NCBI GenBank assembly: GCA_001899685.1
Contig: MKWG01000011.1
Location: forward strand, 124,001-188,000
Source of the DNA: Sphingobacteriales bacterium 44-15
Lineage (GTDB): Bacteria; Bacteroidota; Bacteroidia; Chitinophagales; Chitinophagaceae
Direction of reading: 5' to 3'
Length of the DNA stretch: 64,000 nucleotides
Shown: positions 12,915 through 63,590 of the stretch, piece by piece
Position numbering within the stretch: position 1 is the first letter of the stretch
Layout of the letters: each line of letters starts with the position of its first letter
The notes under the pieces: generated by a model
The model's database searches: none
Seen by the model: only the letters and a program-made list of their open reading frames with translations
What the model was told of the DNA's origin: nothing
Translations under genes and position numbers: made by a program

Positions 12915-14018
12915 ATGTCTCGTCAACCGTTATTGTTTACTCCAGGTCCTTTGTCTACCTCTCTTACCGTAAAAGAAGCCATGCTGAAAGATATGGGCTC
13001 AAGGGATTTTGCCTTTATAAATGCGGTAAAGGATATCAGGAGCGGGCTGCTCCGGCTGGCGCATGTTTCAAAAGAAGAAGGATATGAATGTGTGATCATA
13101 CAGGGCTCCGGTACTTTTGGGGTGGAAAGTGTGATCAGTAGCGTGATTGGTGAAAAAGACAAACTGCTGGTGCTCGCTAACGGGGCGTACGGAGAGCGTA
13201 TTGCCAAAATGGCTAAGATACACCGCCTGAACCATGAGGTGCTTCGCTTTGATGAAGATACTATTGTAGCTCCTGAAGCAGTTGAAAAATTCCTGTCAGC
13301 CAATAAAGACATTACCCATGTTGCATGCATACACAGTGAAACCACCACAGGATTATTCAACCCTGTTGAAGCGGTAGGAGAGGTTTGTAAAAAATACGGG
13401 GCAGTATATATTGTGGATGCTATGAGCAGCTTTGGTGGTGTGGTAATGGATATGGCTGCGCTGCATATTGATTTTCTTGTATCCTCTTCCAATAAATGCA
13501 TTGAAGGCGTTCCGGGCTTCGCTTTTGCATTATGTAAAAGAGCTTCGCTTGAAAAAGCAAAAGGGCAGGCGAGAAGCCTCAGCCTTGATCTGTATGACCA
13601 GTGGGCCGGGCTGGAAGCCAGTGGGCAATTCCGTTTTACCCCGCCTACCTTGAGCATCATGGCTTTTCAGCAGGCTATGCAGGAATTAGCGCTTGAAGGA
13701 GGTGTTGCAGCCCGCGAGCAACGGTATAAGACCAATAAGAAGATCCTTGATGAAGGAATGCGCCGGCTGGGCTTTAAACAATATCTGCAACCGGAGATCC
13801 AGGGACATATTATCACTTCTTTTTTATATCCCGATTCACCCAATTTCAGGTTCGATGAGTTTTACCGTAAGCTTAATGACCGGGGATTTGTAATATATCC
13901 CGGCAAGCTCAGTAAAGCAGACGCCTTCAGGATAGGAAATATAGGCCAGATCTTCCCGGATGATGTAAAAGCGCTACTTGAAGCTATAACAGAAGTAATG
14001 AAGGAATTTGAAATTTGA
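12915..14018 (+). CDS. phnW: 2-aminoethylphosphonate--pyruvate transaminase
   Basis: A 367-residue PLP aminotransferase of class V fold. It is predicted to convert 2-aminoethylphosphonate and pyruvate to phosphonoacetaldehyde and alanine. The N-terminal LLFTPGPLSTSLTVKEAML, the early GSRDFAFI block and QGSGTFGVESVI are PhnW hallmarks. The PLP lysine sits in SSSNKCIEGVPGFAFAL; VDAMSSFGG supplies the ring-stacking Asp. Length fits the family. It lies just after a DUF5690 transporter-like gene. The other two enzymes of the PhnW-PhnY-PhnA route are encoded 7-10 kb away in this window. A perfect 32-bp palindrome covers the last codons and the stop. Confidence 0.93.
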   Translation: MSRQPLLFTPGPLSTSLTVKEAMLKDMGSRDFAFINAVKDIRSGLLRLAHVSKEEGYECVIIQGSGTFGVESVISSVIGEKDKLLVLANGAYGERIAKMAKIHRLNHEVLRFDEDTIVAPEAVEKFLSANKDITHVACIHSETTTGLFNPVEAVGEVCKKYGAVYIVDAMSSFGGVVMDMAALHIDFLVSSSNKCIEGVPGFAFALCKRASLEKAKGQARSLSLDLYDQWAGLEASGQFRFTPPTLSIMAFQQAMQELALEGGVAAREQRYKTNKKILDEGMRRLGFKQYLQPEIQGHIITSFLYPDSPNFRFDEFYRKLNDRGFVIYPGKLSKADAFRIGNIGQIFPDDVKALLEAITEVMKEFEI

Positions 14019-14036
14019 GATCTCAAATTTCAAATT
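14005..14036. repeat. Perfect 32-bp palindrome of heptamer units across the phnW stop
   Basis: The 16 bases 14005-14020 (AATTTGAAATTTGAGA) are followed directly by their exact reverse complement at 14021-14036. The sequence has a 7-nt period (units such as AAATTTG, AAATTTC) and runs through the last codons and stop of phnW. A related ATCTCAATTTTTCAA-type stretch occurs in the loop of the array near 45190. I count this as the shortest member of the heptamer-array family. Confidence 0.85.
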
Positions 14037-14053
14037 TGCCTACCTTTAGCAGC

Positions 14054-15766
14054 ATGGACAAGAAATTCCGCAGCAGCAACTGGTTTGGTAAGACAGGCAA
14101 AGATGGATTCATATACCGCGCCTGGATGAAAAACCAGGGGATCCCTTCTTATGAATTTGATGGCAGGCCCGTTATTGGCATTTGTAATACATGGTCGGAG
14201 CTTACACCCTGCAATGCTCATTTCAGGGAGCTGGCGGAATCTGTAAAAAGAGGCATTTCCGAAGCCGGAGGTTTCCCTGTGGAATTTCCGGTAATGTCGC
14301 TGGGCGAAACGCTGATCAAGCCTACGGCTATGCTTTACCGTAACCTGGTAAGCATGGACGTGGAAGAATCCATAAGGGCGAATCCTATGGATGGGGTGGT
14401 GCTGCTTTGCGGATGCGACAAAACCACACCGGCATTGGTAATGGGTGCCTGCAGCGTAAATATTCCCGCTATCGTAGTCTCAGGCGGTTCCATGCTTACA
14501 GGCAAATACAGGGGAACAAATATTGGCACAAGTGATATATGGCGTTTCAGTGAGGCGGTACGCGCCGGTAAAATGACCAACGAAGAGCTGGTTGTTACAG
14601 AAGCCTGTATGGGCAGGAGCCGCGGGCATTGTGCCGTAATGGGTACTGCGTCCACCATGGCATGTATGGTGGAGTCGCTGGGGTTATCATTGCCTGAGAA
14701 TGCAGCCATACCTGCGCCAGATGCGCGCCGCAAAGTGCTTGCACAACTGTCGGGCAGGCGTATTGTGGAGATGGTAAAAGAAAACCTCCGTCCTTCCGAT
14801 ATTCTTACACGCAAGGCTTTTGAAAATGCCATTAAAGTGAATGCGGCTATTGGCGGCTCTACCAATTTTGTTTTGCACCTTTTAGCTATCGCCGGGAGGA
14901 TAGGAGTAGACCTTTCTATTACCGACTTTGATAAGTTTTCACAGGATATACCGCTTATTGCCAACCTGCAGCCATCGGGAGTGCATTTTATGGAAGACCT
15001 GTATTATGCAGGAGGCTTACCTGCGGTAATGAAAGAGATAGATGCATTCCTGCACAGGGATTGTATCACGGTGAATGGTAAAACCATTTCCGAAAATTAT
15101 GCGCCGGCGGAATGCTTCAACAGGGAAGTCATTGCTACTGCAGAAGCGCCGTTCAATACCATCTCCGGCATTGTGGTGCTGAAAGGAAATATTTGTGAAG
15201 AAGGCGCGGTGCTCAAGCCCTCTGCCGCCAGCAGCCATCTTTTAAAACATACAGGCAGGGCAATCGTATTTGAAGATATAGAAGACTATAAAAAACGTAT
15301 TGATGATCCAGATCTTGATGTGGATGAAAACAGTGTAATGGTGTTGAAAAACGTTGGGCCGAAAGGATATCCCGGTATGCCGGAAGTAGGAAATATGGGG
15401 CTGCCCAAAAAGCTGTTGGAAAAAGGAGTTACAGATATGGTGCGCATATCCGACGGGCGCATGAGCGGTACCGGTTTCGGTACTGTTGTACTGCATGTTT
15501 CCCCCGAAGCGGCCGCGGGCGGTACCCTGTCGGTAATAGAAGATGGCGACATTATTACATTAGATGTGGAGCAGCGTTTGCTGCATGTAGAGATTGCCGG
15601 CGAAGTGCTGGAAAAACGGAAACAACAAAAAGCGCTGTCACAAAATATTTATGCAAGAGGCTATGTAAGTCTCTATATTGATCATGTGCAGCAGGCTCAC
15701 CAGGGTGCTGATTTTGATTTTCTCAGGGGGGCTTCAGGCAGTGAGGTTACGAGAGACTCTCATTGA
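14054..15766 (+). CDS. IlvD/Edd family dehydratase, probably sugar-acid type
   Basis: A 570-residue iron-sulfur dehydratase. The cluster cysteines are visible in GICNTWSELTPCN (about residue 50), LLCGCDKTTPALVMG and GHCAVMGTASTMACM. The ICNTWSE form of the first motif is the one found in aldonate dehydratases (arabonate/xylonate/gluconate type) rather than in dihydroxyacid dehydratase, so removal of water from a sugar acid to give a 2-keto-3-deoxy acid is favoured; the exact substrate is unknown. The ATG at 14054 (MDKKFRSSNWFG) is preferred over the TTG at 14015, which would overlap phnW and translate the palindrome. It ends at a CAGCAGCATGCTGCTG palindrome (15767-15782) facing a convergent gene. 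Confidence 0.88.
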   Translation: MDKKFRSSNWFGKTGKDGFIYRAWMKNQGIPSYEFDGRPVIGICNTWSELTPCNAHFRELAESVKRGISEAGGFPVEFPVMSLGETLIKPTAMLYRNLVSMDVEESIRANPMDGVVLLCGCDKTTPALVMGACSVNIPAIVVSGGSMLTGKYRGTNIGTSDIWRFSEAVRAGKMTNEELVVTEACMGRSRGHCAVMGTASTMACMVESLGLSLPENAAIPAPDARRKVLAQLSGRRIVEMVKENLRPSDILTRKAFENAIKVNAAIGGSTNFVLHLLAIAGRIGVDLSITDFDKFSQDIPLIANLQPSGVHFMEDLYYAGGLPAVMKEIDAFLHRDCITVNGKTISENYAPAECFNREVIATAEAPFNTISGIVVLKGNICEEGAVLKPSAASSHLLKHTGRAIVFEDIEDYKKRIDDPDLDVDENSVMVLKNVGPKGYPGMPEVGNMGLPKKLLEKGVTDMVRISDGRMSGTGFGTVVLHVSPEAAAGGTLSVIEDGDIITLDVEQRLLHVEIAGEVLEKRKQQKALSQNIYARGYVSLYIDHVQQAHQGADFDFLRGASGSEVTRDSH

Positions 15767-15801
15767 CAGCAGCAGCATGCTGCTAATGCACGAGTATTTA
15801 G

Positions 15802-17190: not shown

Positions 17191-17202
17191 CCCTGTTAAG
17201 CT

Positions 17203-19476: not shown

Positions 19477-19484
19477 TAATAAGC

Positions 19485-20385: not shown

Positions 20386-21243
20386 ATGAAAAACCTACTT
20401 CTTTTTTTGCCCTTCACCCTTTCTGTGTTCTCAATTTCATGCCAGTCTTCTACCGGTAAGGTTGAAGCCGGAACTGTGCCGGTAACAGATACAGTACGTC
20501 AGAAAGTAATTGCTCCGGCATTGGCTGATACCCTGATAGATGCTCCTGCTATATTAGCAAAGGCACAGATCCCGGTGTTATGTTATCACCAGATCAGGGA
20601 TTGGCGACCGGGCGATTCGAAATCCGCAAAAGATTTTATTGTACCGCCTGCAATATTCAGGAGCCAGATAAAGCTGCTGGCCGACAGTGGCTATCATACC
20701 ATCCTGCCGGATGACCTGTATGCATATCTCACCAAAGGTATGCCGCTTCCTTCCAGGCCAGTTATGCTTACTTACGATGACGGCGATGCGGATCAATATA
20801 ATATTGCTGCATCTGAAATGGCAAAATACGGCTTCAAAGGAGTTTATTTTGTAATGACAGTATCTTTAGGGCGTTCTATATACATGACCAAAGAACAGGT
20901 GAAAAAGCTTTCTGATGAGGGTAATGTTATTGGCTCTCATACCTGGAATCACCAGGATGTGCGCCACTATACTGACGCCGACTGGGACAAACAGCTTACA
21001 GCGTCTGTCAGGCAGCTCGAAGAGATCACCGGGAAACCGGTAAAATATTTTGCATATCCTTTCGGCGCCTGGAATAAAGATGCTTTGGCGGCGCTGAAAA
21101 AACGAAATATTACCGCAGCTTTTCAACTATCAACCAAAATGGATCCTGATGATCCTTTATATACTATCCGTCGTATGATCGTTCCAGGTAGCTGGAGTGC
21201 CCCTGTCATGCTGAATGCAATGAAGCGGACTTTTAAGGGGTAG
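20386..21243 (+). CDS. Polysaccharide deacetylase lipoprotein
   Basis: A 285-residue exported protein starting MKNLLLFLPFTLSVFSISC, giving a lipobox cysteine at residue 19. The ATG at 20377, three codons earlier, is an equal alternative; the much longer upstream frame overlaps the opposite-strand SDR and is rejected. The NodB domain spans about 95-280: IPVLCYHQIRDW, the metal Asp pair in MLTYDDGDADQYN, the histidines in VIGSHTWNHQDVRHY, and YFAYPFGAWN. It should remove N- or O-acetyl groups from an envelope or extracellular glycan. A heptamer array starts 10 bp after the stop. Confidence 0.9.
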   Translation: MKNLLLFLPFTLSVFSISCQSSTGKVEAGTVPVTDTVRQKVIAPALADTLIDAPAILAKAQIPVLCYHQIRDWRPGDSKSAKDFIVPPAIFRSQIKLLADSGYHTILPDDLYAYLTKGMPLPSRPVMLTYDDGDADQYNIAASEMAKYGFKGVYFVMTVSLGRSIYMTKEQVKKLSDEGNVIGSHTWNHQDVRHYTDADWDKQLTASVRQLEEITGKPVKYFAYPFGAWNKDALAALKKRNITAAFQLSTKMDPDDPLYTIRRMIVPGSWSAPVMLNAMKRTFKG

Positions 21244-21252
21244 GGATTAAGA

Positions 21253-21378
21253 GTGGTAAGTGATAAGTGGTAAGTGATATCACGCAAGTTACAGATTGCA
21301 AGTCACAAGGTTCAGGTTACGAGTGATAAGACCCGGGACGTGAAATGTGACAGGCGAACCTGTAACCTGAAACCTCCC
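21253..21378. repeat. Heptamer array, locus 2
   Basis: About seventeen consecutive 7-nt units fill the gap between convergent genes. Units include GTGGTAA, GTGATAA, GTTACAG, GACGTGA, ACCTGTA and ACCTGAA. TTCAGGTTAC (21311-21320) is the exact complement of GTAACCTGAA (21362-21371), so the right part can fold on itself. The vocabulary changes along the array from GTGGTAA-type to GTTACAG-type to ACCTGTA-type. Confidence 0.85.
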
Positions 21379-21382
21379 TCTC

Positions 21383-24063: not shown

Positions 24064-24140
24064 GATGTGATTATGTTTATAAATACTAAATTAAATATAG
24101 CAAATGTAAACATTTTCACGAAACCGGGAGGTTAAAAAAA

Positions 24141-24245
24141 GTGGTAAGGGGTAAGGGGTAAGTGGTAAGACGTGAAAGGTGAGACGTGAACCTGCAATCT
24201 GAAACATCTTATCACTTACCACTTACCTCTTATTGCTTCCCTCCC
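24141..24245. repeat. Heptamer array, locus 3
   Basis: Fifteen contiguous 7-nt units lie between the regulator stop and the phnA promoter region, abutting the regulator stop exactly. Units include GTGGTAA, GGGGTAA, GACGTGA, ATCTGAA, ATCACTT and ACCACTT. GGTAAGTGGTAAG (24157-24169) is exactly complementary to CTTACCACTTACC (24215-24227), giving a 13-bp stem. Confidence 0.9.
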
Positions 24246-24830: not shown

Positions 24831-24907
24831 GTTGAAAAGATTTCCGGTCTAAATTAGTCGTTACGGCAATAATCATCAAAAGTTTTAATGGGAATAGAGA
24901 GAGGGAA

Positions 24908-25037
24908 GACGATAAACGTGAGATGTCAAACGATAAACGTGGGATGTCAAACGACAGACGTGAGACGACAAATGTGAAAACCTCTCGCATTTCACGTTTA
25001 TCGTCTCATGTCTCACGCATTCACATTGCCCATTCAC
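24908..25037. repeat. Heptamer array, locus 4, in a divergent promoter region
   Basis: Ten units on the left (GACGATA, AACGTGA, GATGTCA and variants) are followed by an 11-nt break and seven units on the right (ATTTCAC, GTTTATC, GTCTCAT, CATTGCC, CATTCAC). GACGATAAACGTGA (24908-24921) is exactly complementary to TCACGTTTATCGTC (24992-25005). This is the only array placed between two divergent genes rather than behind a stop codon. Confidence 0.9.
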
Positions 25038-30835: not shown

Positions 30836-32254
30836 ATGAATAATAACCGAAGGAGCTTTTTAAAGATGGCGGGGCTATTGAGCACAGGAATGGCATCCGG
30901 TCCTTTGCATGGTTTTTCAAAAAACAGTGATCATAATGCTGTATCCGGCGCCGGAACTAATGACGCGCAGCTATTTAATATGTGCGGGTACCGTGCTCCA
31001 AAGATTGATACGGTGCGTATTGGTTTTGCAGGGCTTGGAAACAGGGGGAGCGCTGCTGTAAAACGTATCAGCCATATTGATGGGATTTCTATTAACGGTC
31101 TTTGTGATATCCGGCCCGAAAGAGTGCAGCAATCGCAGGCAGCTATTAAAAGCCTGCCTTATAAGCCTGCATTGTATTCAGCAAGCGGCGACGATTATAA
31201 AAAAATGTGTGAGCGGGAAGATATTGATGTGGTTTATATAGCCACTCCCTGGAACCTGCATGTGCCTATCGCGGTATATGCCATGAATCATGGCAAGCAT
31301 GTATGCATTGAAGTGGGTAATGCCGAATCTATTGAGGAATGCTGGCAACTGGTCAATGCTTCTGAAAAAAATAAAAAGCATTGCATCTTTCTCGAAAATT
31401 GCTGCTATGATTTCTTTGAGCTGCTTACGCTTAACATGGCGCGACAGGGATATTTCGGTGACATTGTACATTGTGAAGGGGCTTATATTCATACCATTGA
31501 GGAAAGCCTCTTTGATGTAAATGCACGCTATAATTTATGGCGGCTGAGGGAAAATGCAAAAGGCAGCGGCAATCTTTATCCCACTCATGGGTTGGGTCCT
31601 ATATGCCAGGTGATGAATATCAACAGGGGCGACCAATTGGACTACCTGGTATCTGTGAGCGGTAATGATTTTACCCTGCATCATCTTGAAGAAGAAGCAT
31701 ATAAAAAAGATCCTGCAACCTTCAAGCCATTTTTGAATGCCGGCTTCAGGGGGAATATGAATACTTCTGTGATAAAAACCATGAAAGGCAAGACCATTAT
31801 GTTGCAACATGATGTGAGCAGCCCGCGTGTGTATTCACGTATTCACCTGATAAGCGGTACAAAAGGGAGCGCTTTAAAATATCCCCTGCCGGGAAAGATT
31901 GCGAACAGCCATGAAGGCTGGCTTTCGGAAGATGATATGAAGAAGCTGGAGGATACTTACACTCTCCCTATCGTAAAGCGGTTAGGGGAGATGGCAAAAC
32001 AGGTTGGAGGGCACGGCGGAATGGACTTTTTAATGGACTGGCGATGGATAGATTGCCTGCGTAACGGCTTACCGGTTGATAACGATGTATATGATGCGGC
32101 GTTATGGACTTCCATCGGTCCTTTAAGCAAGTGGTCGGCAGCACACCGTTCTGCTTCCATCGATGTGCCGGATTTCACGCGGGGAGCCTGGAAAAAAAAT
32201 AAACCGGTTGAACTTTCTATTGATCACGAAAACCTTACCGGGGTGAAAGCGTAG
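30836..32254 (+). CDS. GH109 family glycosidase (alpha-N-acetylgalactosaminidase type), Tat-exported
   Basis: A 472-residue Gfo/Idh/MocA-fold protein. The N-terminus NNRRSFLKMAGLLSTGMA is a Tat signal. The Rossmann motif IGFAGLGNRGSAAVKRI is at about residue 60, followed by VYIATPWNLHVPIAVYAMN and KHVCIEVGNA. The C-terminal blocks GHGGMDFLMDWRWIDCLRNG, DVYDAALWTSIGPLS and VPDFTRGAW are those of GH109, which hydrolyse alpha-GalNAc by an NAD-dependent mechanism. It sits 25 bp after the esterase gene and before nagB/nagA. The substrate is probably terminal GalNAc or a related sugar. A heptamer array begins on the last base of the stop codon. Confidence 0.85.
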   Translation: MNNNRRSFLKMAGLLSTGMASGPLHGFSKNSDHNAVSGAGTNDAQLFNMCGYRAPKIDTVRIGFAGLGNRGSAAVKRISHIDGISINGLCDIRPERVQQSQAAIKSLPYKPALYSASGDDYKKMCEREDIDVVYIATPWNLHVPIAVYAMNHGKHVCIEVGNAESIEECWQLVNASEKNKKHCIFLENCCYDFFELLTLNMARQGYFGDIVHCEGAYIHTIEESLFDVNARYNLWRLRENAKGSGNLYPTHGLGPICQVMNINRGDQLDYLVSVSGNDFTLHHLEEEAYKKDPATFKPFLNAGFRGNMNTSVIKTMKGKTIMLQHDVSSPRVYSRIHLISGTKGSALKYPLPGKIANSHEGWLSEDDMKKLEDTYTLPIVKRLGEMAKQVGGHGGMDFLMDWRWIDCLRNGLPVDNDVYDAALWTSIGPLSKWSAAHRSASIDVPDFTRGAWKKNKPVELSIDHENLTGVKA

Positions 32255-32310
32255 TGAATGGTGAATGGGCAATGGTGAATTTATTCACTATTCACCATTG
32301 CCCATTCACC
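32254..32310. repeat. Heptamer array, locus 5, a 20-bp perfect hairpin
   Basis: Eight 7-nt units start on the last base of the GH109 stop. 32260-32279 (GGTGAATGGGCAATGGTGAA) pairs perfectly with 32291-32310 around an 11-nt loop. The arm is one base different from the arm of locus 8 at 45127. No T-run follows. Confidence 0.92.
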
Positions 32311-32378
32311 TTGGGAATACAGCATACTATAATTAACTCATAACCATCTTATCTTTCATAAAATAATAAACACATAAA

Positions 32379-36895: not shown

Positions 36896-36923
36896 GTGAA
36901 TAGACAGTAGTGAATAGTGAATG
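36896..36923. repeat. Heptamer array, locus 6 (single arm)
   Basis: Four 7-nt units (GTGAATA, GACAGTA, GTGAATA, GTGAATG) lie in the leader of the second sigma-factor gene. No complementary arm follows, unlike most other loci. The vocabulary is the GTGAATG class shared with loci 5, 8, 11 and 13. Confidence 0.75.
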
Positions 36924-37647: not shown

Positions 37648-37692
37648 CGTGAAAAGTGAGACGATAAATAGCTTCACGTCTCTCATTTCACG
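37648..37692. repeat. Heptamer array, locus 7
   Basis: A 16-nt arm (37648-37663, CGTGAAAAGTGAGACG) pairs at 13 of 16 positions with 37677-37692 around a 13-nt loop. Units are AGTGAGA, CGATAAA, ACGTCTC and TCATTTC, the same vocabulary as loci 4 and 13. It is 20 bp before the fecR start, within the sigma/anti-sigma operon. Confidence 0.8.
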
Positions 37693-37711
37693 TTTGACAC
37701 AGTAATATAAT

Positions 37712-45142: not shown

Positions 45143-45232
45143 TGAATAGTGAATGCTGAACAGGCAATGATGCATGTAAGAGATCTCAATTTTTCAATTT
45201 GACATTTCACTATTCACTATTGCCCATTCACC
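45127..45232. repeat. Heptamer array, locus 8, 27-bp perfect inverted repeat
   Basis: 45127-45153 pairs with 45206-45232 over 27 bp without mismatch, with a 52-nt loop. Units are GTGAATG, GGCAATA, GTGAATA and their complements TATTCAC, ATTGCCC. The loop contains ATCTCAATTTTTCAATT, related to the palindrome at 14005. The left arm overlaps the 3' end and stop codon of the preceding gene. Confidence 0.93.
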
Positions 45233-45267
45233 ATCAATGATCCTGTTAATCTTTAAACAATATAATT

Positions 45268-47613
45268 ATGTCTGAAAATAATTTTACCCGTAGGGATTTT
45301 GTGCTCAAATCAGCAGCCGGAATAGGAGGGCTTGCTGTGGCAGGATACGCAGCACGCGCTACCACTATAGAAAAAAAGATCAGCAATGTTGCTCCGGGGA
45401 AAGACGGGGCGCCTCAGCCGGCTAATCTTGCAGCAGCAGATGATGTGGTCATTGAAAACGACCAGATGAAATTAGTGATAGGATCCGATGCGATAGTCAA
45501 GAGCCTGCTGTTTAAACCTACCGGTGAAGAATGCCTGGTAAGTGGTAAAAATATCCCGATAAGCACCATGATCCAGGATAGGCCTTATCAAAATGAAGTA
45601 AAGCTTGCTTATCCAAATGCGGAAATGAGTTTTAAAGCTAACTCAGCCCGGAAAGATGGGAACAAGCTCACTATCGGCTACGAATTAATTCCTGATAGCA
45701 TCACCGTTAGTATAAATATAAAGCCACAATATATTGAGTTCAGGATAGAAGACCTTATTGCTGATCAGAAAGGCTATGGCGGTGTGCTCATTGCTTCACC
45801 TCCTGCCACTAAAATATGGTTCCTGCAATTACCTGTTCGTGAGCGGAGCTATTACGGCGATCTCTTACAGGTTGTTTGGGACGAAAAAGTTGCCACTAAC
45901 CTGTTATCCACTGACCCGTATGCAAGAATAGTTGCTGAAAAGACAGACGGCTGCTACATTCTGAAAGCCGGAGCCGAAAGAGAGGTGAAGCTGAAAGGAA
46001 CAAGCGTTGCGCTGATAACCTGCGCTACAGATAAACTATTGGATAATATTGGCCGACTGGAAGATGATTTTAATTTATCTCCCGGTGTGAAAAGCCGCAG
46101 GAGTAAAGAATACAGGTATTCTTACTATTGGACGGCGGATATCAATCCCGGCAATATGGACAGGCACCTGAAATATGCAAAGATGGGAGGATTCCGGGCC
46201 ATGAGTATCTATTACCCTGCCTTTTTAAAGAGCAGGGGATACCGTCTCATAGGTGATTATGAATGGAACCGGTCGCTCTATCCAAACGGCAAAGAAGATC
46301 TCCGGAAGCTATTGAATACAGTTAAGGCGCAAGGCATTACCCCCGGATTTCATTTTCTTCATTCCTTTATCGGGCTCGACAGCAAATATGTAACGCCTGT
46401 TCCGGATCACCGGTTAAATATGGTAAAGCTGTTTACGCTAGCCTCTCCCCTGAGAAAAGATGCTGTTACTATTCACGTTGACCAGGATCCCGCTACCATA
46501 GAAATGGCGAAAGGTCGCCGTGTTTTAAAGATCGGCACAGAGCTGATCACTTATGAAGGCTTTACGGATACCAGGCCGTACCAGATCACCGGCTGCACCC
46601 GCGGTGCATTTCAGACAAAGGCGGATGAGCATCCTGCAGGCTTTATGCTGGGTGTGCTTGACGTAAGTGAATTTGGCGCGCAAAGTGTTTATATCAACCA
46701 GGACAATGATCTGCAGGATGAGATGGCGGAAAAGCTGGCAGATATTTACGATGCGGGATTTCAATTCTGCTATTACGACGGCTCTGAAGGGGTGAATGCT
46801 CCTTTCTGGGTTAACGTATCCCTGGCGCAGTGGCGGGTACATAAAAGATTAAACCCGCAGCCTTTATTTGCGGAAGGAGCGGCTAAAACGCATTTCAGCT
46901 GGCATATGCTGAGCCGCGGAAATGCTTTTGATATTTTCAGGCCGGAAGTGCTGAAAGAAGAGATCAGAAGACATCCCGCGGCTGAAGCGCCCAGGATGAA
47001 AGAAAATTTCACGCATATTAATTTTGGATGGTTAGGCTATTGGGTTCCCGATGAAAAGACGGTAGGAACGCAACCCGATATGCTTGAGTATGTCAGCAGC
47101 AGGGCTGCGGCATGGGATTGTCCTATCAGCATTCAATCCAGCCTGAAGAAATTTGATGACCATCCCAGGACTGCCGATAACTTTGAAGTAATGAGAAGGT
47201 GGGAAGAAGTCAGGAACAACGACCTGCTCACCGCAGCGCAGAAATTATCTCTTCAGCAATTAGAGCAGGAACATATTTTATTGATCAATGAGAAGAATGA
47301 ATTTGAATTGCAGCCTTACGACCAGATAACAAATGTAGCCGGTAACAGCAGGGAAGTACGTGCATTTATCTTTGAACGGGGTGGCAGTTTGTATGTTGTT
47401 TACTGGCATATATCAGGCGCTAAACAATTAGAGCTGCCCTTAAATCATAAAAATGTTACGGTAATGGAGGATTTACAAAAGAGATCTTCGGTGAAGTTTT
47501 CTAAGCAGTCCGGTAGCATTACAATACCTGTCAGCAATCGCAGGTATATTAAAATCGGGGGAGCAACAAAAGATCAGGTAAGGATTGCTTTCCAAAATGC
47601 AAAAATTTCCTGA
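45268..47613 (+). CDS. Tat-exported glycosidase-like protein, family not recognised
   Basis: A 781-residue protein. NFTRRDFVLKSAAGIGGLAV is a Tat signal. Residues about 55-270 look like a beta-sandwich or mutarotase-like domain. From about 285 the pattern is that of a TIM barrel: YYWTADINPGNMDRHLKYAK, MGGFRAMSIYYPAF, VKAQGITPGFHFLHSFIG and FCYYDGSEGVNAPFW. The acidic YYDGSE after a strand is a candidate catalytic site. A small beta domain ends the protein. The layout recalls GH31/36/97-type enzymes but I cannot assign a family. It shares its Tat leader pattern with the next gene, suggesting the leader was duplicated. Confidence 0.7.
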   Translation: MSENNFTRRDFVLKSAAGIGGLAVAGYAARATTIEKKISNVAPGKDGAPQPANLAAADDVVIENDQMKLVIGSDAIVKSLLFKPTGEECLVSGKNIPISTMIQDRPYQNEVKLAYPNAEMSFKANSARKDGNKLTIGYELIPDSITVSINIKPQYIEFRIEDLIADQKGYGGVLIASPPATKIWFLQLPVRERSYYGDLLQVVWDEKVATNLLSTDPYARIVAEKTDGCYILKAGAEREVKLKGTSVALITCATDKLLDNIGRLEDDFNLSPGVKSRRSKEYRYSYYWTADINPGNMDRHLKYAKMGGFRAMSIYYPAFLKSRGYRLIGDYEWNRSLYPNGKEDLRKLLNTVKAQGITPGFHFLHSFIGLDSKYVTPVPDHRLNMVKLFTLASPLRKDAVTIHVDQDPATIEMAKGRRVLKIGTELITYEGFTDTRPYQITGCTRGAFQTKADEHPAGFMLGVLDVSEFGAQSVYINQDNDLQDEMAEKLADIYDAGFQFCYYDGSEGVNAPFWVNVSLAQWRVHKRLNPQPLFAEGAAKTHFSWHMLSRGNAFDIFRPEVLKEEIRRHPAAEAPRMKENFTHINFGWLGYWVPDEKTVGTQPDMLEYVSSRAAAWDCPISIQSSLKKFDDHPRTADNFEVMRRWEEVRNNDLLTAAQKLSLQQLEQEHILLINEKNEFELQPYDQITNVAGNSREVRAFIFERGGSLYVVYWHISGAKQLELPLNHKNVTVMEDLQKRSSVKFSKQSGSITIPVSNRRYIKIGGATKDQVRIAFQNAKIS

Positions 47614-47626
47614 CCCCGGATTGTGG

Positions 47627-47695
47627 GAGGTGAGATGACAGATGTGAATGGACAGTGGTGATTTTTTTTCACGTCTCACGTCTCACATTTCATGA
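47627..47695. repeat. Heptamer array, locus 9
   Basis: Left units (ATGACAG, ATGTGAA, TGGACAG) are followed by an eight-T run and right units TCACGTC (twice), TCACATT and TCATGAT. It starts 14 bp after the previous stop and reaches to within about 30 bp of the next start codon (47722). Confidence 0.8.
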
Positions 47696-56130: not shown

Positions 56131-56136
56131 TATATT

Positions 56137-56463
56137 ATGATCCGTAAATCTTTTCTTATCCGGGCAAAAGAAGGAATGGCAGAAGAGTATGAACGCCGGC
56201 ATGACAATATTTGGCCTGCACTTACAGATATTTTTAAACAACATGGCATACATAAATTTTCAATTAATCTTCATAAAGATACAGGCTACCTCTTTGGTTA
56301 TATTGAAATAGAAGATGAAGAAAGATATAACGCCATAGGCAATTATGATGTTTGTAAAAAATGGTGGAAATATATGACCGAGGTGCTGGTATGTGAAAAT
56401 GAAAACAGTGAGAAAGGAAAAGAAGACATTTTACGAGAGGTATTTTATTTTGAAAGGGAGTAA
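56137..56463 (+). CDS. rhaM: L-rhamnose mutarotase
   Basis: A 108-residue ferredoxin-like-fold enzyme interconverting the anomers of L-rhamnose (or a related 6-deoxy sugar). SFLIRAKEGMAEEYERRHDN and IWPALTDIFKQHGIHKFSI carry the catalytic His, and GYLFGYIEIEDEERYNAI and VCKKWWKYMTEV match RhaM. Length is normal. A heptamer array starts on its last codon. It is followed by rhaT, which fits uptake and handling of a rhamnose-like sugar. Confidence 0.92.
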   Translation: MIRKSFLIRAKEGMAEEYERRHDNIWPALTDIFKQHGIHKFSINLHKDTGYLFGYIEIEDEERYNAIGNYDVCKKWWKYMTEVLVCENENSEKGKEDILREVFYFERE

Positions 56464-56570
56464 GGGATAAGGCAAAAAGGAGTAAGGCAATAGAGTGTAG
56501 GGCCCAAGGCATAGGCGTACCTTATACCCTGCACCTTATACCTCATACCTTAGTCCTTGCATTACGGCAC
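56458..56570. repeat. Heptamer array, locus 10
   Basis: Sixteen consecutive 7-nt units from the last rhaM codon to 23 bp before rhaT. The left half uses GAGTAAG, GGATAAG, GGCAATA and AGGCATA; the right half CTTATAC (twice), CTCATAC and CTTAGTC, which are imperfect complements of the left words. Confidence 0.9.
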
Positions 56571-56592
56571 TAAATAATCGAAATTAATCAGC

Positions 56593-57639
56593 ATGGAATA
56601 TTTCTTAGGCATTCTGTTTCATTCTATCGGCGGATTTTCTTCTGCCAGCTTTTACGTTCCTACTTACAAGATAAAAACATGGCACTGGCAGACATACTGG
56701 ATCACCCTCGGCTTTGTTGCCTGGATCATTATGCCTACCATTGGCGGTCTGATCACAACAAACGGTTTGTTCGATATTCTTGCCGGCGTTTCCTCCAATA
56801 CAAAATTGCTTACTTACCTGTATGGCGTGCTGTGGGGCTTTGGCGGGCTGATGGCCGGACTGGGAATAAGATATTTAGGTTTAGCCCTCGGGCAGTCTAT
56901 CTGTCTGGGCGTTTGCGTTATTATCGGCACAATTGTCCCGGCTGCTATAGACCATAAGTTAGGGCTGTTGTTTAATACAACTCCCGGTCTTGTTATCACA
57001 GCCGGGTTCCTGGTGTGCCTGGTGGGTATAGTATTTTGCGGATATGCAGGCGTATTAAAAGACAGGGATGACAGGGGCATTGAACGGAATGTTTCTGTAA
57101 AGGAATTTTCGCCGGTAAAAGGATTGATTATGGCTATTGCCGGCGGAGTAATGAGTTCGTTCATGGCGCTCGCAATAAATGCAGGCGGCCCTATTGCCCA
57201 TCAGGCGCTACAGTCGGGTACGGAAAAGGTGTTTGTTAATATTCCTATTTTCGTTCTTGCGCTTGCCGGAGGTTTTACAACCAATTTTGTGTACGCTGTT
57301 ATTCTGACCGTGAAGAAAAAGACAATTTCAGATTTTCAGCTTCATGATAAAAGACTTCTGACGAAAAATTTTTTATTGTCCATGCTGGCTGGTCTTATGT
57401 GGTACTGCCAGTATTTTTTTTACGGCATGGGCGCCACTAAAATGGGGCAATACGATTTTGCAAGCTGGACACTGCACCTGGCCACTATTATCATATTCAG
57501 TAACCTGTGGGGTGTTTATCTTAAAGAATGGGAAAATATCAACGCCAAAACAAAAATTTACCTGTGGACAGGGATCATACTATTGATAATTTCGGTTGTT
57601 TTAATAGGTGTGGGAAATAAATTAGGCGGAACTTTGTAA
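56593..57639 (+). CDS. rhaT: L-rhamnose/proton symporter
   Basis: A 348-residue ten-helix permease. YFLGILFHSIGGFSSASFYV, TYKIKTWHWQTYWITLGFVA, WGFGGLMAGLGIRYLGLALG and GGVMSSFMALAINAGGPIAH are the RhaT blocks, and WYCQYFFYGMGATKMGQYDF is diagnostic. It imports L-rhamnose or a closely related 6-deoxy sugar. It lies between rhaM and a UxaA-type dehydratase pair, with arrays on both sides, so it is probably in the same transcription unit. Confidence 0.93.
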   Translation: MEYFLGILFHSIGGFSSASFYVPTYKIKTWHWQTYWITLGFVAWIIMPTIGGLITTNGLFDILAGVSSNTKLLTYLYGVLWGFGGLMAGLGIRYLGLALGQSICLGVCVIIGTIVPAAIDHKLGLLFNTTPGLVITAGFLVCLVGIVFCGYAGVLKDRDDRGIERNVSVKEFSPVKGLIMAIAGGVMSSFMALAINAGGPIAHQALQSGTEKVFVNIPIFVLALAGGFTTNFVYAVILTVKKKTISDFQLHDKRLLTKNFLLSMLAGLMWYCQYFFYGMGATKMGQYDFASWTLHLATIIIFSNLWGVYLKEWENINAKTKIYLWTGIILLIISVVLIGVGNKLGGTL

Positions 57640-57641
57640 GG

Positions 57642-57795
57642 GTGAATGGTGAATAGGCAATAGTGAATGGTGAATGAAACGTGAGACGATAAAAGTGAAA
57701 AGTGAGAAGGTGAAACCCGCAACTGACACTGATAGCTGACACTCATAGCCCATAGCTGATAGCTGATAGCTCACACCTGTAACCTCAAAACTCAT
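57642..57795. repeat. Heptamer array, locus 11, composite of four vocabularies
   Basis: Twenty-two 7-nt units run without a break from 3 bp after rhaT to 7 bp before the next start. Four successive vocabularies are seen: GTGAATG/GGCAATA, then AGACGAT/AAAAGTG, then AGCTGAT/AGCCCAT, then ACCTGTA/ACCTCAA. The first part contains the 20-mer shared with loci 5, 8 and 13 (57648-57667). No long perfect stem is present. Confidence 0.92.
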
Positions 57796-57802
57796 TTCGT
57801 AT

Positions 57803-59288: not shown

Positions 59289-59305
59289 CTTTTAAAAAAA
59301 GGAAT

Positions 59306-60133: not shown

Positions 60134-60142
60134 AGTCCTTTT

Positions 60143-60226
60143 GTATAAGATGTTTCAGGTTACAGGTACCTCAAACCTGTAATGCCCAATCTGAAACCTG
60201 AAACCTGTAACTTGAAACCCGAAACA
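60143..60226. repeat. Heptamer array, locus 12
   Basis: Twelve 7-nt units begin 10 bp after the lactonase stop: AGGTTAC, AGGTACC, TGTAATG, TGAAACC and TGTAACT among them. GTTTCAGGTTACAGGT (60152-60167) pairs with 60203-60218 at 15 of 16 positions. Confidence 0.88.
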
Positions 60227-60318
60227 ATTTCCAGGTCTCTTCTTATCCACCTATTTACCCTTCCGGTGAGTCTGACTTTTCTGGTTTGTTTTTATGTCAT
60301 AAATTCAGGTTGAACCCC

Positions 60319-60326
60319 TATCTTTG
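60319..60326 (+). promoter_or_regulatory. Bacteroidota -7 box before secDF
   Basis: TATCTTTG matches the TAnnTTTG consensus of the principal Bacteroidota sigma factor, 37 bp before the secDF ATG. No convincing -33 TTTG is seen at the expected distance. Confidence 0.5.
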
Positions 60327-60363
60327 CCCCCAATTTTAAATTTTTTTGTAAACGCTTATTAGT

Positions 60364-63300
60364 ATGCAACTGAAAGGTTTGGTCACTGTTTTTGCGATTG
60401 CATTGATTGCTATTTCCCTTTACCAGCTTCATTTTACATGGGTTGTTCACAACCATGAAGGCAAAATGGAGGTTAAAGCCCGCAACTGGGTAAACGCCGG
60501 TTATGCAGGGGCTGACCAGGAAACAAAAGACTCGGCTTATAATCATAAGCTGAAACGGCTATTGGACAGTACCAAAGGTGCGGTCATTACTTACGGCATC
60601 ACCGGCCCGGTAAGCTATGAGAAAGCCAAGGAGCAGGAACTGAGCCTTGGTTTGGATCTCCAGGGTGGAATGAGCGTGACCCTTGAGGTAGAGCTTCAAG
60701 ACCTTTTAAAATCCATTTCCAATAACCCCCAGGATCCGGCGCTTAATAAAGCGCTGCAACAGGCCTACCAGCGTAAGGGAACCACAGATGCAGATTTTAT
60801 CAGCTTGTTTGCACAGGCATATAAAGAAATCAATCCGGGCGCAAAATTGGCAGGCATATTTGCAAATGCCGGTCAGCGGAATATTAAGCTTGAAGATTCT
60901 GACGATCAGGTAGTATCAAAGCTCCGCACTATGGCCGGAGAAGCTTTTCAAAACACTTTCAGAGTATTGACCAAACGTATTGACCAGTTTGGAGTTGCGC
61001 AGCCCAATATTAACCCCGACGCCAACAAGGGGACGATCAGCGTGGAGCTGGCAGGGGTGAAAGATGACCCTGAAAGGGTAAGAAAAATATTGCAGGCAAC
61101 TGCTAATCTCCAGTTCTGGGAAGTTTACCGCGGCAATGAATTATCCGCTTCTTTTACCCAGGCCGAAGACCTGTTGAAAAGATCAAAGTCGGAAACTCCT
61201 GATACTGCAAAAGTACAGGCTGCAAAGCCGGATACAACCACTGCGGCTTCCGCACATGTTGATACAACAAAGACCTTGTCGCTTAATGATATTGCAAAGA
61301 ATGATACCGGCAATAAGACAAAAGATACTGCTGCTGCTGTACAGGCGCCTACCCATACTATAATGGGATTGCTTATGCAGGCGCCGCAGGGAGATGCAGC
61401 GCTTGCTTATGTGCAGGTAAAGGATACCAGCCTGTTAAATCAAAACCTTGAGCAGGTAAAAGATGTATTTCCGTCTGACGCTAAATTTTTGTACGGGATA
61501 ACCCCCAAAACAGAAGCCGGTCGGTCGAATATAGTGCCATTATATGTGGTCAGGACACGTGAAGGAGGCAAAGCCCCGCTGGAAGGCAATGATGTGGAAG
61601 AATCAACCATATCGTATGATGAAAGAGGGCGTCCGGCGGTATCTCTCAGGATGACCAAGCAGGGCACAAAGAAGTGGGGCGATCTTACCACTGATAATGT
61701 AAATAAGCCCATCGCAATTGTGCTGGATAATGTAGTGTATTCTGCGCCTAATGTGGTAAACCCGATTCTTGATGGTAATTCACAGATATCGGGGAGCTTT
61801 ACTGTAGAGGAGGCCTCTGACCTTTCCAATATTTTACAATCCGGTCAGCTGGCGGCTCCTGCCAGGATCGTGGCAGAACAAACAGTAGGACCCACTCTTG
61901 GTGAAGAAGCGATCAAAGGAGGAGCAATGTCTTTCATCATTTCGTTTATTGTAATATTCGCCCTGATGCTTTTATATTATAATACCAGCGGATGGGTTGC
62001 CAATATTACACTGATATTAAACCTGCTCTTTACTATAGGGGTGCTTACAGGGCTGGGCGCTACGCTCACCTCCGCAAGCATTGCGGCGCTGGTGCTTGCT
62101 ATCGGTATGGCTGTAGATACGAATGTGATCATTTTTGAACGTGTCAAGGAAGAAATTTCCTGGGGCAGAAGCTATGCTATGGCGGTGGATCACGGGTATA
62201 ACCGTTCTTTGCCCCCGATCCTCGATGCGCACGTGACAACCCTGCTCACAGCGATAATCCTGTATGTATTTGGTATGGGTCCTATCAAAGGATTCGCTAC
62301 CACCCAGATCATTGCGGTTGTGCTCAACCTGTTTTGCGGTATCCTTATCGCAAGGCTGGTATCCGAATGGTGGACCAATAAACGCGGACGCCACTTTGAA
62401 TACTTTACAAAGCTTTCGAGAGTAATATTCAAAAAGGCACATTTTAAGTTTGTTGAATCAAGAAAGGTAGCTTATATCATTTCGATCTTCGTGTTCATTT
62501 TTGGTGTTGGTTCTTTCTTTTACGGCTTTGATGAAGGCGTGGAATATAAAGGCGGAAGAAGCTATACCGTACAGTTTGAGCATCCCCAGAAAGAAGAAGC
62601 AGTAAGTGATGAGCTGCATAAGGCACTGGGAGAGTATCCCGTTGTAAAGACAGTAGGAGATGCGCGTACCTTAAATATTACAACATCCTTCCAAAAAGAG
62701 AACCCTTCGAAATCTGCGGATTCGCTGGTGGAAATGACTGTATTTGAAGGATTGAAGCCTTTCCTTGCAGAGGGCACTACGCATGCAGATTTCAAAAAGA
62801 AATACCTTCAATTCTCACAGAGTGTCCAGCCGACTATTTCTGAAGATCTGAAACGTGGCGCCGTAACGGCAACGGTTGTTTCAATTATACTTATTTTCCT
62901 TTATATTTTTCTGCGTTTCCGCGACTGGAGGTTCTCACTCGGTACTATTGTATCGCTTGTGCATGACGTATTTGTTACGCTTGCTGTCTTTTCATTCCTG
63001 CGTCATATAATGCCTTTCCCGCTGGAAATTGACCAGCACTTTATTGCGGCTATACTGACGGTAGTTGGTTTCTCAATGAATGATACGGTAATTGTGTTTG
63101 ACAGGATACGTGAATACGGGCGAACCATGAAGGGAGAAAGTAAGACCAAAGTTATCAATGCCGCTATTAATGATACGCTCAGTCGTACCATTATGACTTC
63201 GGTTACGGTGCTGATCGTGGTATTGGTGCTCTTTATATTTGGCGGTGAGGCTACCAGAGGATTTTCCTTTGCCATGCTGATTGGTGTGGTCACAGGTATT

Positions 63301-63444
63301 TATTCGTCCATATTTGTTGCTGCTCCGATATTGGTTGATTTTGCTAAAGACAAGCCTCTGGGTAAGCTAACAAAGGAAGAGATAAGAGCTGCCAGGCAGG
63401 CAAAAGCGAATGTTGCCGCTAAAGCAGCAGGCGCACAACATTGA
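60364..63444 (+). CDS. secDF: Fused SecD-SecF preprotein translocase subunit
   Basis: A 1026-residue inner-membrane protein that uses the proton gradient to pull secreted proteins out of SecYEG. The first helix is followed by the SecD periplasmic P1 domain (LGLDLQGGMSVTLEVELQDL near 95) and the six-helix SecD membrane block from about 515 (TLGEEAIKGGAMSFIISFI; AIGMAVDTNVIIFERVKEE). The SecF half starts near 700 (VEYKGGRSYTVQFE) and ends with GFSMNDTVIVFDRIREYGRT and GGEATRGFSFAMLIGVVTGI. A Thr/Asp/Ala-rich stretch at about 275-330 is a low-complexity insertion in the SecD periplasmic part. The Bacteroidota fusion is of normal length. Confidence 0.96.
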   Translation: MQLKGLVTVFAIALIAISLYQLHFTWVVHNHEGKMEVKARNWVNAGYAGADQETKDSAYNHKLKRLLDSTKGAVITYGITGPVSYEKAKEQELSLGLDLQGGMSVTLEVELQDLLKSISNNPQDPALNKALQQAYQRKGTTDADFISLFAQAYKEINPGAKLAGIFANAGQRNIKLEDSDDQVVSKLRTMAGEAFQNTFRVLTKRIDQFGVAQPNINPDANKGTISVELAGVKDDPERVRKILQATANLQFWEVYRGNELSASFTQAEDLLKRSKSETPDTAKVQAAKPDTTTAASAHVDTTKTLSLNDIAKNDTGNKTKDTAAAVQAPTHTIMGLLMQAPQGDAALAYVQVKDTSLLNQNLEQVKDVFPSDAKFLYGITPKTEAGRSNIVPLYVVRTREGGKAPLEGNDVEESTISYDERGRPAVSLRMTKQGTKKWGDLTTDNVNKPIAIVLDNVVYSAPNVVNPILDGNSQISGSFTVEEASDLSNILQSGQLAAPARIVAEQTVGPTLGEEAIKGGAMSFIISFIVIFALMLLYYNTSGWVANITLILNLLFTIGVLTGLGATLTSASIAALVLAIGMAVDTNVIIFERVKEEISWGRSYAMAVDHGYNRSLPPILDAHVTTLLTAIILYVFGMGPIKGFATTQIIAVVLNLFCGILIARLVSEWWTNKRGRHFEYFTKLSRVIFKKAHFKFVESRKVAYIISIFVFIFGVGSFFYGFDEGVEYKGGRSYTVQFEHPQKEEAVSDELHKALGEYPVVKTVGDARTLNITTSFQKENPSKSADSLVEMTVFEGLKPFLAEGTTHADFKKKYLQFSQSVQPTISEDLKRGAVTATVVSIILIFLYIFLRFRDWRFSLGTIVSLVHDVFVTLAVFSFLRHIMPFPLEIDQHFIAAILTVVGFSMNDTVIVFDRIREYGRTMKGESKTKVINAAINDTLSRTIMTSVTVLIVVLVLFIFGGEATRGFSFAMLIGVVTGIYSSIFVAAPILVDFAKDKPLGKLTKEEIRAARQAKANVAAKAAGAQH

Positions 63445-63451
63445 TGGGGTG

Positions 63452-63590
63452 GTGAATAGGCAATGGTGAGAAAATGCGTGAAAAGAGAAATGATAGACGA
63501 TAAACGTGGAAGTAAATTGTTGTCTCACATTTAACGTCTATCATCTCACAGGTATTCATTTTTCACCATTCACTTCTCACGTCTGACCTT
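63452..63590. repeat. Heptamer array, locus 13
   Basis: About nineteen 7-nt units start 8 bp after the secDF stop: GTGAATA, GGCAATG, TAGACGA, TAAACGT on the left and GTCTCAC, GTCTATC, ATCTCAC, CACCATT on the right. ATGATAGACG (63490-63499) is exactly complementary to CGTCTATCAT (63535-63544). 63451-63470 fits the 20-mer shared with loci 5, 8 and 11. Confidence 0.9.

What the first reader, a model, noticed from the sequence alone, without database searches (positions are those of the whole stretch)
14005..63590. A dispersed family of strictly 7-nt-periodic intergenic arrays
Thirteen loci (14005, 21253, 24141, 24908, 32254, 36896, 37648, 45127, 47627, 56458, 57642, 60143, 63452) hold runs of 4 to 22 heptamers with no spacer. 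Units differ in sequence but belong to a few word classes (GTGAATG/GGCAATA; ACGTGAG/ACGATAA; GTGGTAA/GTGATAA; ACCTGTA/ACCTGAA; CTTATAC; AGCTGAT), and the same words recur at loci tens of kb apart. Four loci share GGTGAATRGGCAATRGTGAR. Most have a complementary right arm. Heptameric tandem repeats (STRR) are known from filamentous cyanobacteria, but I know of no description for this lineage. The mechanism that keeps the 7-nt step while the words drift is unknown.
Basis: partly seen in the sequence, partly recalled or inferred. Interest (0 to 1): 0.78.

Follow-up and report, generated by a model that had tools for sequence, protein, structure and literature searches.

The report
Seven-base repeat hairpins at gene ends
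Between the genes of this bacterium lie many short runs of changing seven-letter DNA words that fold back on themselves, usually with the G-rich side first; they look like the product of a DNA-copying process rather than RNA signals, and resemble repeats known from other bacterial groups.

Summary
Eleven of the 13 loci exceed all 500 shuffles for lag-7 periodicity; 36896 (P=0.022) and 37648 (P=0.072) are weak. The genome is a 6.0-Mb Chitinophagaceae, in a genus that includes Terrimonas sp. NS-102 (inferred from a contig length). In 848 kb there are 132 intergenic lag-7 segments against a mean of 5.8 at other lags. They are palindromes of a few word families, frequent after genes and scarce between divergent genes. 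Two results stand out. First, the 5' arm is the G-rich one in 68 of 71 stems, against 48:50 in array-free intergenic hairpins; looser criteria give weaker figures in the same direction. Second, stem mismatches show no RNA signature (G.T 203, A.C 196), while terminator-like hairpins in the fetched DNA do (63:18). Between related species arrays mostly stay at the same spacer while words and unit numbers change. Best reading: DNA-level slippage in 7-nt steps plus inverted (fold-back) copying with a strand polarity. Closest known: Xanthomonas GGGNATC heptads (same geometry, but G-quadruplex-forming) and cyanobacterial STRRs. New variant of a known kind; why 7, and why G first, remain open.

The parts
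14003..14037 (.). AATTTGA-family palindrome at the overlap of two ORFs (12915..14018 and 14015..15766)
   Evidence: lag-7 score 13.5, beyond 500 shuffles; perfect 15-bp stem 14005-14019/14022-14036
21234..21375 (.). GTGRTAA array, then GTTACAG/ACCTGNA words; between convergent ORFs ending at 21243(+) and 21383(-)
   Evidence: score 22.5; 10-bp stem, P=0.04
24139..24238 (.). GTGGTAA/GGGGTAA left arm and TTACCAC/TTATCAC right arm, between two minus-strand genes
   Evidence: score 33.5; 29-nt stem 24145-24173/24204-24232, beyond 100 shuffles
24900..25034 (.). ACGATAA/ACGTGAG/ATGTCAA palindrome in a divergent spacer (cupin/HTH protein minus, TetR-type protein plus)
   Evidence: score 19.8; 30-nt stem beyond 100 shuffles; flanking genes by Pfam
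32252..32312 (.). GTGAATG/GGCAATG palindrome directly at the stop codon of ORF 30836..32254
   Evidence: score 16.8; perfect 21-bp stem 32260-32280/32290-32310
36896..36923 (+). short GTGAATA/GACAGTA run, no significant stem; weak
   Evidence: lag-7 P=0.022; stem P=0.16
37648..37698 (.). short GTGAAAA/GTGAGAC hairpin; lag-7 alone not significant
   Evidence: lag-7 P=0.072; stem 37648-37663/37677-37692 beyond 100 shuffles
45126..45242 (.). GTGAATR/GGCAATR palindrome overlapping the end of ORF 44066..45142
   Evidence: score 22.5; perfect 28-bp stem 45126-45153/45206-45233
47609..47692 (.). GTGAGAT/GTGAATG/GACAGAT left arm, TCACGTC right arm, fills the spacer between two plus-strand ORFs
   Evidence: score 15.2; 19-nt stem beyond 100 shuffles
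56455..56558 (.). GGAGTAA/GGATAAG left arm, CTTATACC right arm
   Evidence: score 17.8; 21-nt stem, P=0.05
57638..57794 (.). longest array of the window: GTGAATR words, then ACGTGAG words, then AGCTGAT and ACCTGTA words, with no significant gapless stem
   Evidence: score 40.0; stem P=1.00
60150..60225 (.). GTTTCAG/GTTACAG left arm, CTGAAAC/CTGTAAC right arm
   Evidence: score 20.5; 16-nt stem beyond 100 shuffles
63451..63594 (.). GTGAATA/GGCAATG start, then GTGAAAA/GATAGAC/GATAAAC palindrome after the stop of ORF 60364..63444
   Evidence: score 17.5 at 63478-63594; 22-nt stem beyond 100 shuffles; shared pattern at 63451

Best explanation
These are mutation-driven minisatellite palindromes built at the DNA level in the weakly constrained DNA around gene ends. 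SHOWN: strict 7-nt step; few word families; palindromic arms with the G-bearing arm preferentially 5' on both strands; scarcity between divergent genes; an array usually kept at an orthologous spacer while unit number and word family change; stem mismatches without RNA bias. INFERRED: (1) misalignment in whole 7-nt units duplicates, deletes and spreads heptads along an arm; (2) now and then the nascent strand switches template onto itself (fold-back copying), writing the reverse complement of the arm next to it, and later switches partly re-match the arms; (3) fold-back happens mostly when the nascent arm is the G/T/A strand, because G.T wobble lets that strand pair weakly with itself while the C/A/T strand cannot, which would give the G-first order; (4) selection only trims: arrays are lost where they hit coding or promoter DNA. 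Any effect on expression would be a by-product.
For: Lag-7 excess is intergenic: 132 segments against a mean of 5.8 per other lag in 848 kb. Heptads one unit apart in an arm are more alike than those 2, 3, 4 apart (0.65, 0.586, 0.539, 0.458), as local duplication predicts. G003/G007 orthologous spacers with conserved flanks differ by heptad-sized blocks (gaps of 7 and 21 nt in r11-r10 among others of 4, 6, 20 and 32; 7 and 26 nt in r10-r9). One G032 arm is 12 identical GATTCAC units opposite a mixed arm. Arms: stem longer than in any of 10 shuffles in 68 of 103 arrays; an arm pairs with its own partner better than with a median 98.6% of 70 foreign partners (stems had been chosen for pairing); perfect 28- and 21-bp stems in the window. 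No RNA-type mismatch bias: G.T 203 vs A.C 196 in 211 stems of same-direction spacers, duplicates removed, 5 sets, against 63 vs 18 in 131 distinct terminator-like hairpins of the fetched DNA, Fisher P=8e-6 (mismatches are not fully independent). G-first: 68 of 71, 2 reversed, 1 tie; control 48:50, 11 ties; whole-spacer stems of score 12 or more: G000 62:8, G032 36:6, G434 7:0, one tie each.
Against: A gap-size count on orthologous spacers found only 21 of 156 gaps in or next to arrays to be multiples of 7, the chance rate (12 of 86 outside arrays); the alignments are poor, so it is inconclusive, but it does not support the model. A fair test of mirrored word order (permute heptads of the 3' arm, re-optimise) is null in G000 (own 18.0 vs 17.4; above the null mean in 21 of 41), other genus members (17.2 vs 16.6; 9 of 16) and G434 (22.7 vs 21.7; 4 of 7) and positive only in G032 (32.9 vs 25.7; 27 of 33); my first version was biased by register choice. 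Polarity is weaker under looser criteria (same-direction stems of score 9 or more: G000 58:9, genus 31:8, G032 20:6, G434 6:0, named loci 43:16), and a looser array-free control is not perfectly even (90:70, 57:61, 65:43). G032 alone leans to G.T (50:36). The limited vocabulary (0.421 of array pairs share a word vs 0.16-0.18 after column permutation) and weak genome dialects (0.399 vs null 0.296, P=0.002) are not predicted by purely local mutation. The sharp peak at 7 (not 6 or 8) and the wobble idea are unexplained or untested.
Confidence: 0.5

Rival explanations
1. DNA binding sites: the heptads are convergent recognition units for a nucleoid, partition or recombination protein (BIME-like), and selection keeps a palindromic array in gene-end spacers while words drift with the protein's specificity.
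For: Arrays are usually kept at orthologous spacers (3 shared, 1 in one species only, among 12 G005/G002 gene pairs; 6 shared, 1 in one only, among 19 G003/G007 pairs) although words differ; limited vocabulary and genome dialects; head-to-head order (left-type words first in 72 of 76 spacers with both).
Against: Several word families in one genome with little in common; sister species can use different families at the same spacer (G003/G007); array density varies several-fold within the genus (2.4 to 17.9 per 10 kb intergenic, small samples). No candidate protein was looked for beyond PF01797 and PF00078.
Confidence: 0.2
2. RNA hairpins in 3' untranslated regions: transcript 3'-end protection, attenuation or termination, as proposed for STRRs (PMC2670836) and known for REP elements (recalled).
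For: Position next to stop codons (median +2 nt, 83 tandem arrays) and scarcity between divergent genes; presence inside iol operon spacers. In tandem spacers T-tract terminators are somewhat rarer where an array is present (3 of 86 vs 24 of 193, pooled P=0.026).
Against: G.T and A.C mismatches are equal on the sense strand, unlike terminator-like hairpins; left-only and right-only arms are equally common relative to transcription (21 vs 23); in convergent spacers terminators go the other way (9 of 30 with array, 7 of 44 without, P=0.16), and none of the four single tests was significant; no Rfam match in the window at gathering threshold. A constraint acting equally on the RNAs of both strands would escape the mismatch test.
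Confidence: 0.15
3. Dispersed mobile or trans-copied element (MITE, RAYT/REP transposition, or RNA-templated heptad addition by a reverse transcriptase).
For: Same words at many loci and across Chitinophagaceae; a Y1_Tnp match in 20 of 21 genomes.
Against: No match to PF00078 (E<=0.001) in the array-bearing genomes G000, G003, G007, G009, G032, G434 and G307; Y1_Tnp copy number does not follow array density (array-poor G008 has 9, array-rich G000 3), and the one of three G000 copies that I looked at has no array within 1.2 kb. No fixed ends seen; target-site duplications were not tested.
Confidence: 0.08
4. G-quadruplex elements, as argued for the Xanthomonas and Nostoc G-rich heptads.
For: Same geometry: G-rich strand near the stop, convergent pairs, avoidance of divergent spacers (PMC4692102, passages).
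Against: Only 1 of 103 arrays holds a (G3N1-7)x4 motif on either strand.
Confidence: 0.02

Closest known systems
Xanthomonas GGGNATC heptameric repeats (Rehm et al. 2015, PMC4692102; abstract and passages seen)
   Same: 7-nt degenerate units, 186 and 183 sites in two genomes, near stop codons on the coding strand and near starts on the non-coding strand, under-represented between divergent ORFs, 70 and 75 convergent pairs forming inverted repeats, much length variation between related species
   Different: One word family with G-tracts that fold as G-quadruplexes; here several families, 1 of 103 arrays with a G4 motif, long mixed-word stems, Bacteroidota
Cyanobacterial STRR heptanucleotide repeats (passages in PMC2670836 and PMC4692102; Mazel et al. 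1990 not seen)
   Same: 7-bp tandem units between genes, able to form hairpins, e.g. between hupS and hupL
   Different: Different lineage; arm polarity and mismatch type are not mentioned in the passages I saw; in Nostoc 7120 only a few paired repeats were reported; word comparison not done here
TAACTGA heptad repeats (MacGregor 2015, PMC4679880; abstract and passages seen)
   Same: Intergenic heptads, reported also in five Bacteroidetes, some with other heptads beside them; the GCTGATA words here are one substitution from a rotation of TAACTGA (direct string comparison)
   Different: One exact word, in the Beggiatoaceae genome mostly just upstream of start codons, 169 sets of direct repeats against one indirect repeat
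Long simple sequence repeats with 7-nt units (Mrazek et al. 2007; known only through PMC4679880 and PMC4692102)
   Same: [quoted passage not shown] slippage at a polymerase contact length was suggested there
   Different: Nothing on palindromes or polarity in what I saw
REP/BIME elements with RAYT transposases (recalled; PMC2817692 seen in a search listing only)
   Same: Palindromic, intergenic, high copy number
   Different: No conserved REP consensus seen; RAYT association examined at one locus only; 7-nt periodicity instead

Membership tests
Xanthomonas/Nostoc G-rich heptads | unit GGGNATC or GGGGA(C/T)T able to form G-quadruplexes | tested here: not met
   1 of 103 arrays has a G4 motif; word families differ
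Xanthomonas/Nostoc G-rich heptads | convergent pairs, G-rich strand pointing inward from both sides | tested here: met
   68 of 71 stems G-first; left-type words first in 72 of 76 spacers
Xanthomonas/Nostoc G-rich heptads | near stop codons, rare between divergent genes | tested here: met
   0.34 per kb divergent vs 1.53 tandem and 1.87 convergent; median +2 nt from the stop in 83 tandem arrays
Cyanobacterial STRR | tandem 7-nt units dispersed between genes | tested here: met
Cyanobacterial STRR | same heptad words as in filamentous cyanobacteria | not tested
   no cyanobacterial genome was searched; a resemblance of GGCAATR words is recalled only
REP/BIME | one conserved short palindromic consensus (recalled definition) | tested here: not met
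   several drifting word families instead
REP/BIME | association with a RAYT (Y1_Tnp) gene | tested here: inconclusive
   Y1_Tnp present in 20 of 21 genomes but copy number unrelated to density; 1 of 3 copies in G000 examined, no array within 1.2 kb
Intrinsic terminator | RNA hairpin tolerant of G.U | tested here: not met
   G.T 203 vs A.C 196 in arrays, 63 vs 18 in terminator-like controls
Intrinsic terminator | hairpin followed by a T tract | tested here: not met
   a T-tract hairpin of any kind lies in 6 of 82 G000 and 6 of 34 G032 array spacers of 80-400 nt
MITE | conserved terminal inverted repeats and target-site duplication | not tested
   no fixed ends noticed in orthologous spacers; duplications not searched for
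TAACTGA repeats | exact TAACTGA unit upstream of start codons | tested here: not met
   none of 12 modelled families has it as consensus, the nearest being GCTGAWW; arrays follow stop codons

The most novel reading that the evidence does not exclude
A general strand-polar fold-back DNA synthesis process acts on bacterial chromosomes: when a nascent strand carries a G/T/A heptad arm it snaps back and copies itself, building palindromes whose G arm is 5' on both strands. Heptad palindromes in Chitinophagaceae and the convergent G-rich heptads of Xanthomonas would be footprints of the same process, and the G-quadruplex would not be its cause.
Probability: 0.25. Interest if true: 0.75.

Novelty: new variant of a known kind. 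Interest (0 to 1): 0.52.

Why it matters
Heptad repeats have been noticed in several phyla, and the papers I saw give no agreed cause. Here two measurable signatures separate the explanations: a strong arm polarity that array-free hairpins and terminators lack, and stem mismatches that carry no RNA bias. They point away from RNA hairpins and G-quadruplexes and towards a polar DNA-copying process, which can be tested on any genome with heptads and in mutation-accumulation lines. It also warns that long perfect stems at gene ends need not be RNA elements.

Tried and rejected
Reverse-transcriptase or telomerase-like templating: rejected, no PF00078 match in several array-rich genomes. RAYT-driven spread: no relation of copy number to density. 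G-quadruplex: 1 of 103 arrays. RNA hairpin on the sense strand: mismatch test against it (recounted without duplicates). Rfam: no match in the window at gathering threshold. Stop-codon capture as the cause of polarity: dropped, because the ACCTGNA and GCTGATA words, which are right-arm words, carry stop codons too (direct reading). Gap sizes as proof of 7-nt slippage: inconclusive (21 of 156). Mirrored word order: my first test favoured the model because the register had been optimised for the observed stem only; the fair version is null except for G032. The tRNA control for the mismatch test failed (0 tRNAs parsed); only terminator-like hairpins serve as control. Array and terminator co-occurrence: four single tests not significant; pooled, tandem P=0.026 (fewer terminators with arrays) and convergent P=0.16 (more). 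A close relative of G032 was sought and not found (1 other genome of its genus held, without a match). Hits of the shared word outside Bacteroidota (4 of 80 listed named loci: L027, L051, L076, L081): three hold little beyond the searched word and may be chance; L051 (a Caldilineales MAG) holds a true heptad run, not followed up. These four were left out of the named-locus counts, not.
Full report
WHERE IT IS. The window is G000:C11:124001-188000 of a 6.0-Mb, 46-contig genome. One genome of the same genus, G006, has a contig of the same length as one of Terrimonas sp. NS-102 (208,657 bases), and G004 matches isolate SJ21 (69,482 bases). These identifications rest on contig length only.

IS IT REAL. 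In the window's 5.6 kb of intergenic DNA, identity at lag 7 is 0.331, with 14 and 21 also raised, while coding DNA shows nothing at 7. Eleven of the 13 loci exceed 500 shuffles; 36896 and 37648 do not. The scan also marks two weaker segments inside ORFs (39756, 44256; scores 9.8 and 10.0). In 848 kb of the genome lag-7 segments are mostly intergenic and outnumber other lags more than tenfold (132 against a mean of 5.8); scaled to 6 Mb this would be of the order of 900 (extrapolation).

ANATOMY. A 12-component mixture model on 481 G000 and 747 other heptad triplets gives, read from the G-rich strand, GKSAATR, GTGARAC, GTGRTAA, GTTNCAG, GNRTAAG, RTSRGCT, GCTGAWW and several looser AT-rich classes; a GTSARTS class has 68 members in other genomes and 1 in G000. 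Families can sit side by side in one array. Arms are inverted: of 103 arrays with score of at least 12, 68 have a stem longer than in any of 10 shuffles; in the window 9 of 13 exceed 100 shuffles and two more are marginal. 57642, the longest array, has no significant gapless stem.

POLARITY. The G-bearing arm usually comes first. By words: same-family left form before right form in 49 family-by-spacer cases, reversed in 1, mixed in 1; any family, 72 of 76 spacers (49 of 51 tandem, 16 of 17 convergent, 7 of 8 divergent). By composition alone: 68 of 71 stems G-first, 2 C-first, 1 tie, against 48:50 with 11 ties in 109 hairpins of spacers without lag-7 signal. With the best stem of the whole spacer and score of at least 12: G000 62:8, G032 (another genus of the family, stems up to 128 positions) 36:6, G434 7:0, one tie each. 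Small samples elsewhere: G006 5:1 with 2 ties, G307 0:1, G015 1:0, G216 1:0. Looser stems: 85:15, 70:28 and 22:7 with array, and 90:70, 57:61 and 65:43 without array, the latter including spacers with sub-threshold arrays. The asymmetry is in G-C pairs (G000: 372 G-first, 87 C-first) more than in A-T pairs (398:288). Array-free terminator-like hairpins: 48:60, 23 ties.

PLACE. Arrays occur in 28 of 77 convergent, 83 of 307 tandem and 8 of 85 divergent spacers; in tandem spacers they begin at a median of 2 nt after the stop, and 38 of 83 begin before its end. ORFs were called by a simple longest-first rule, so start positions are rough.

DNA OR RNA. If sense-strand RNA pairing were selected, G.T mismatches should outnumber A.C. 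In same-direction spacers they do not: 67:66 (G000), 32:32 (other genus members), 50:36 (G032), 9:12 (G434), 45:50 (named and pattern loci), together 203:196 in 211 stems with duplicate loci removed, or 162:157 in 147 stems of score 12 or more (first counts). In 131 distinct terminator-like hairpins with a T tract the ratio is 63:18. Fisher P=8e-6. This speaks against sense-only RNA selection; a constraint acting equally on both strands' RNAs would not show.

EVOLUTION. The iol region is syntenic in the nine other genomes of the genus that I fetched (12 genomes searched, G000 included; G001 and G011 not fetched). At the same spacers species carry different families or unit numbers: for r8-r7, AAATTTG-type in G000, G002, G005 and G007, GTTTATR-type in G003, G004 and G006, none in G008 and G010, and G009 not comparable there. 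No array was flagged in the iol spacers of G008, G009 and G010, although these genomes have some elsewhere (1, 8 and 2 segments in 40, 80 and 20 kb). In wider syntenic stretches the pair at 90% identity (G005/G002) shares arrays at 3 spacers and has one in one species only, among 12 gene pairs; the pair at 85% (G003/G007) shares 6 and has 1 in one only, among 19. Unit numbers differ with flanks conserved in r11-r10 and r10-r9 of G003/G007. A general count of gap sizes was uninformative. Vocabulary is narrower than chance, and arrays of one genome share words somewhat more than arrays of different genomes; both leave room for inter-locus exchange or a trans-acting factor. Eight genera of the family sampled with 20 kb each show little (3 segments against a mean of 0.9), so abundance is patchy within the family.

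MECHANISM. I favour slippage in 7-nt units plus fold-back copying, with purifying selection clearing promoters and genes. Template switching has been proposed as a way to make and mend hairpin stems (PMC8794818, abstract and passages), and two archaeal polymerases slip in vitro on a hairpin-bearing template (PMC4134008, start of abstract in a search listing). The wobble explanation of polarity is my inference and untested. The sharp preference for 7 is not explained here; a polymerase-contact idea is attributed to earlier work in PMC4679880 and PMC4692102.

KNOWN OR NEW. The Xanthomonas heptads share place, convergence and length variation (PMC4692102, passages), so the geometry is not new; what I add is that it holds without G-quadruplex potential, and an explicit test against RNA pairing. 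None of five literal repeat strings is in any paper of the held library, and three searches for such repeats in Bacteroidetes or Chitinophagaceae gave no description of them (listings seen); the library lacks most subscription journals.

Noticed in passing
L182/L183 (G005/G002), iol spacers r8-r7 and r6-r5: These spacers (211 and 134 nt) are 100% identical between two species whose aligned surroundings are 89-92% identical, while neighbouring spacers differ strongly; recent recombination or local constraint.
   Followed up: partly
L182, spacer r12-r11: An 83-bp insert with a palindromic core (CTCCCTCTCCG...GGAGAGGGAG) present in G005 and absent in G002; similar GAGAAGGA-type palindromes are visible in spacers of G004, G006 and G008, so perhaps a MITE-like element distinct from the heptads.
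   Followed up: no
L051:1751-1909: A Caldilineales (Chloroflexota) MAG holds a heptad run of GGNNAAT words like the GTGAATR/GGCAATR family, inside what my simple caller marks as coding.
   Followed up: no
L224:7953-8274 (G032): Two heptad arms that are near-exact reverse complements of each other over several units, separated by about 150 nt.
   Followed up: no
L223:1950-2210 (G032): A mixed GCGTGAG/ACGTGAG left arm faces a right arm of 12 identical GATTCAC units, apparently a recent one-arm expansion.
   Followed up: partly
G216:C3, L238:10122: A very long TTAATGG/CTAATGG heptad array (score 347) in another family of the order.
   Followed up: no
window 14003-14037: A perfect 15-bp AATTTGA-word palindrome sits on the overlap of two ORFs (stop at 14018, start called at 14015), so the heptads may be part of coding sequence there.
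   Followed up: no
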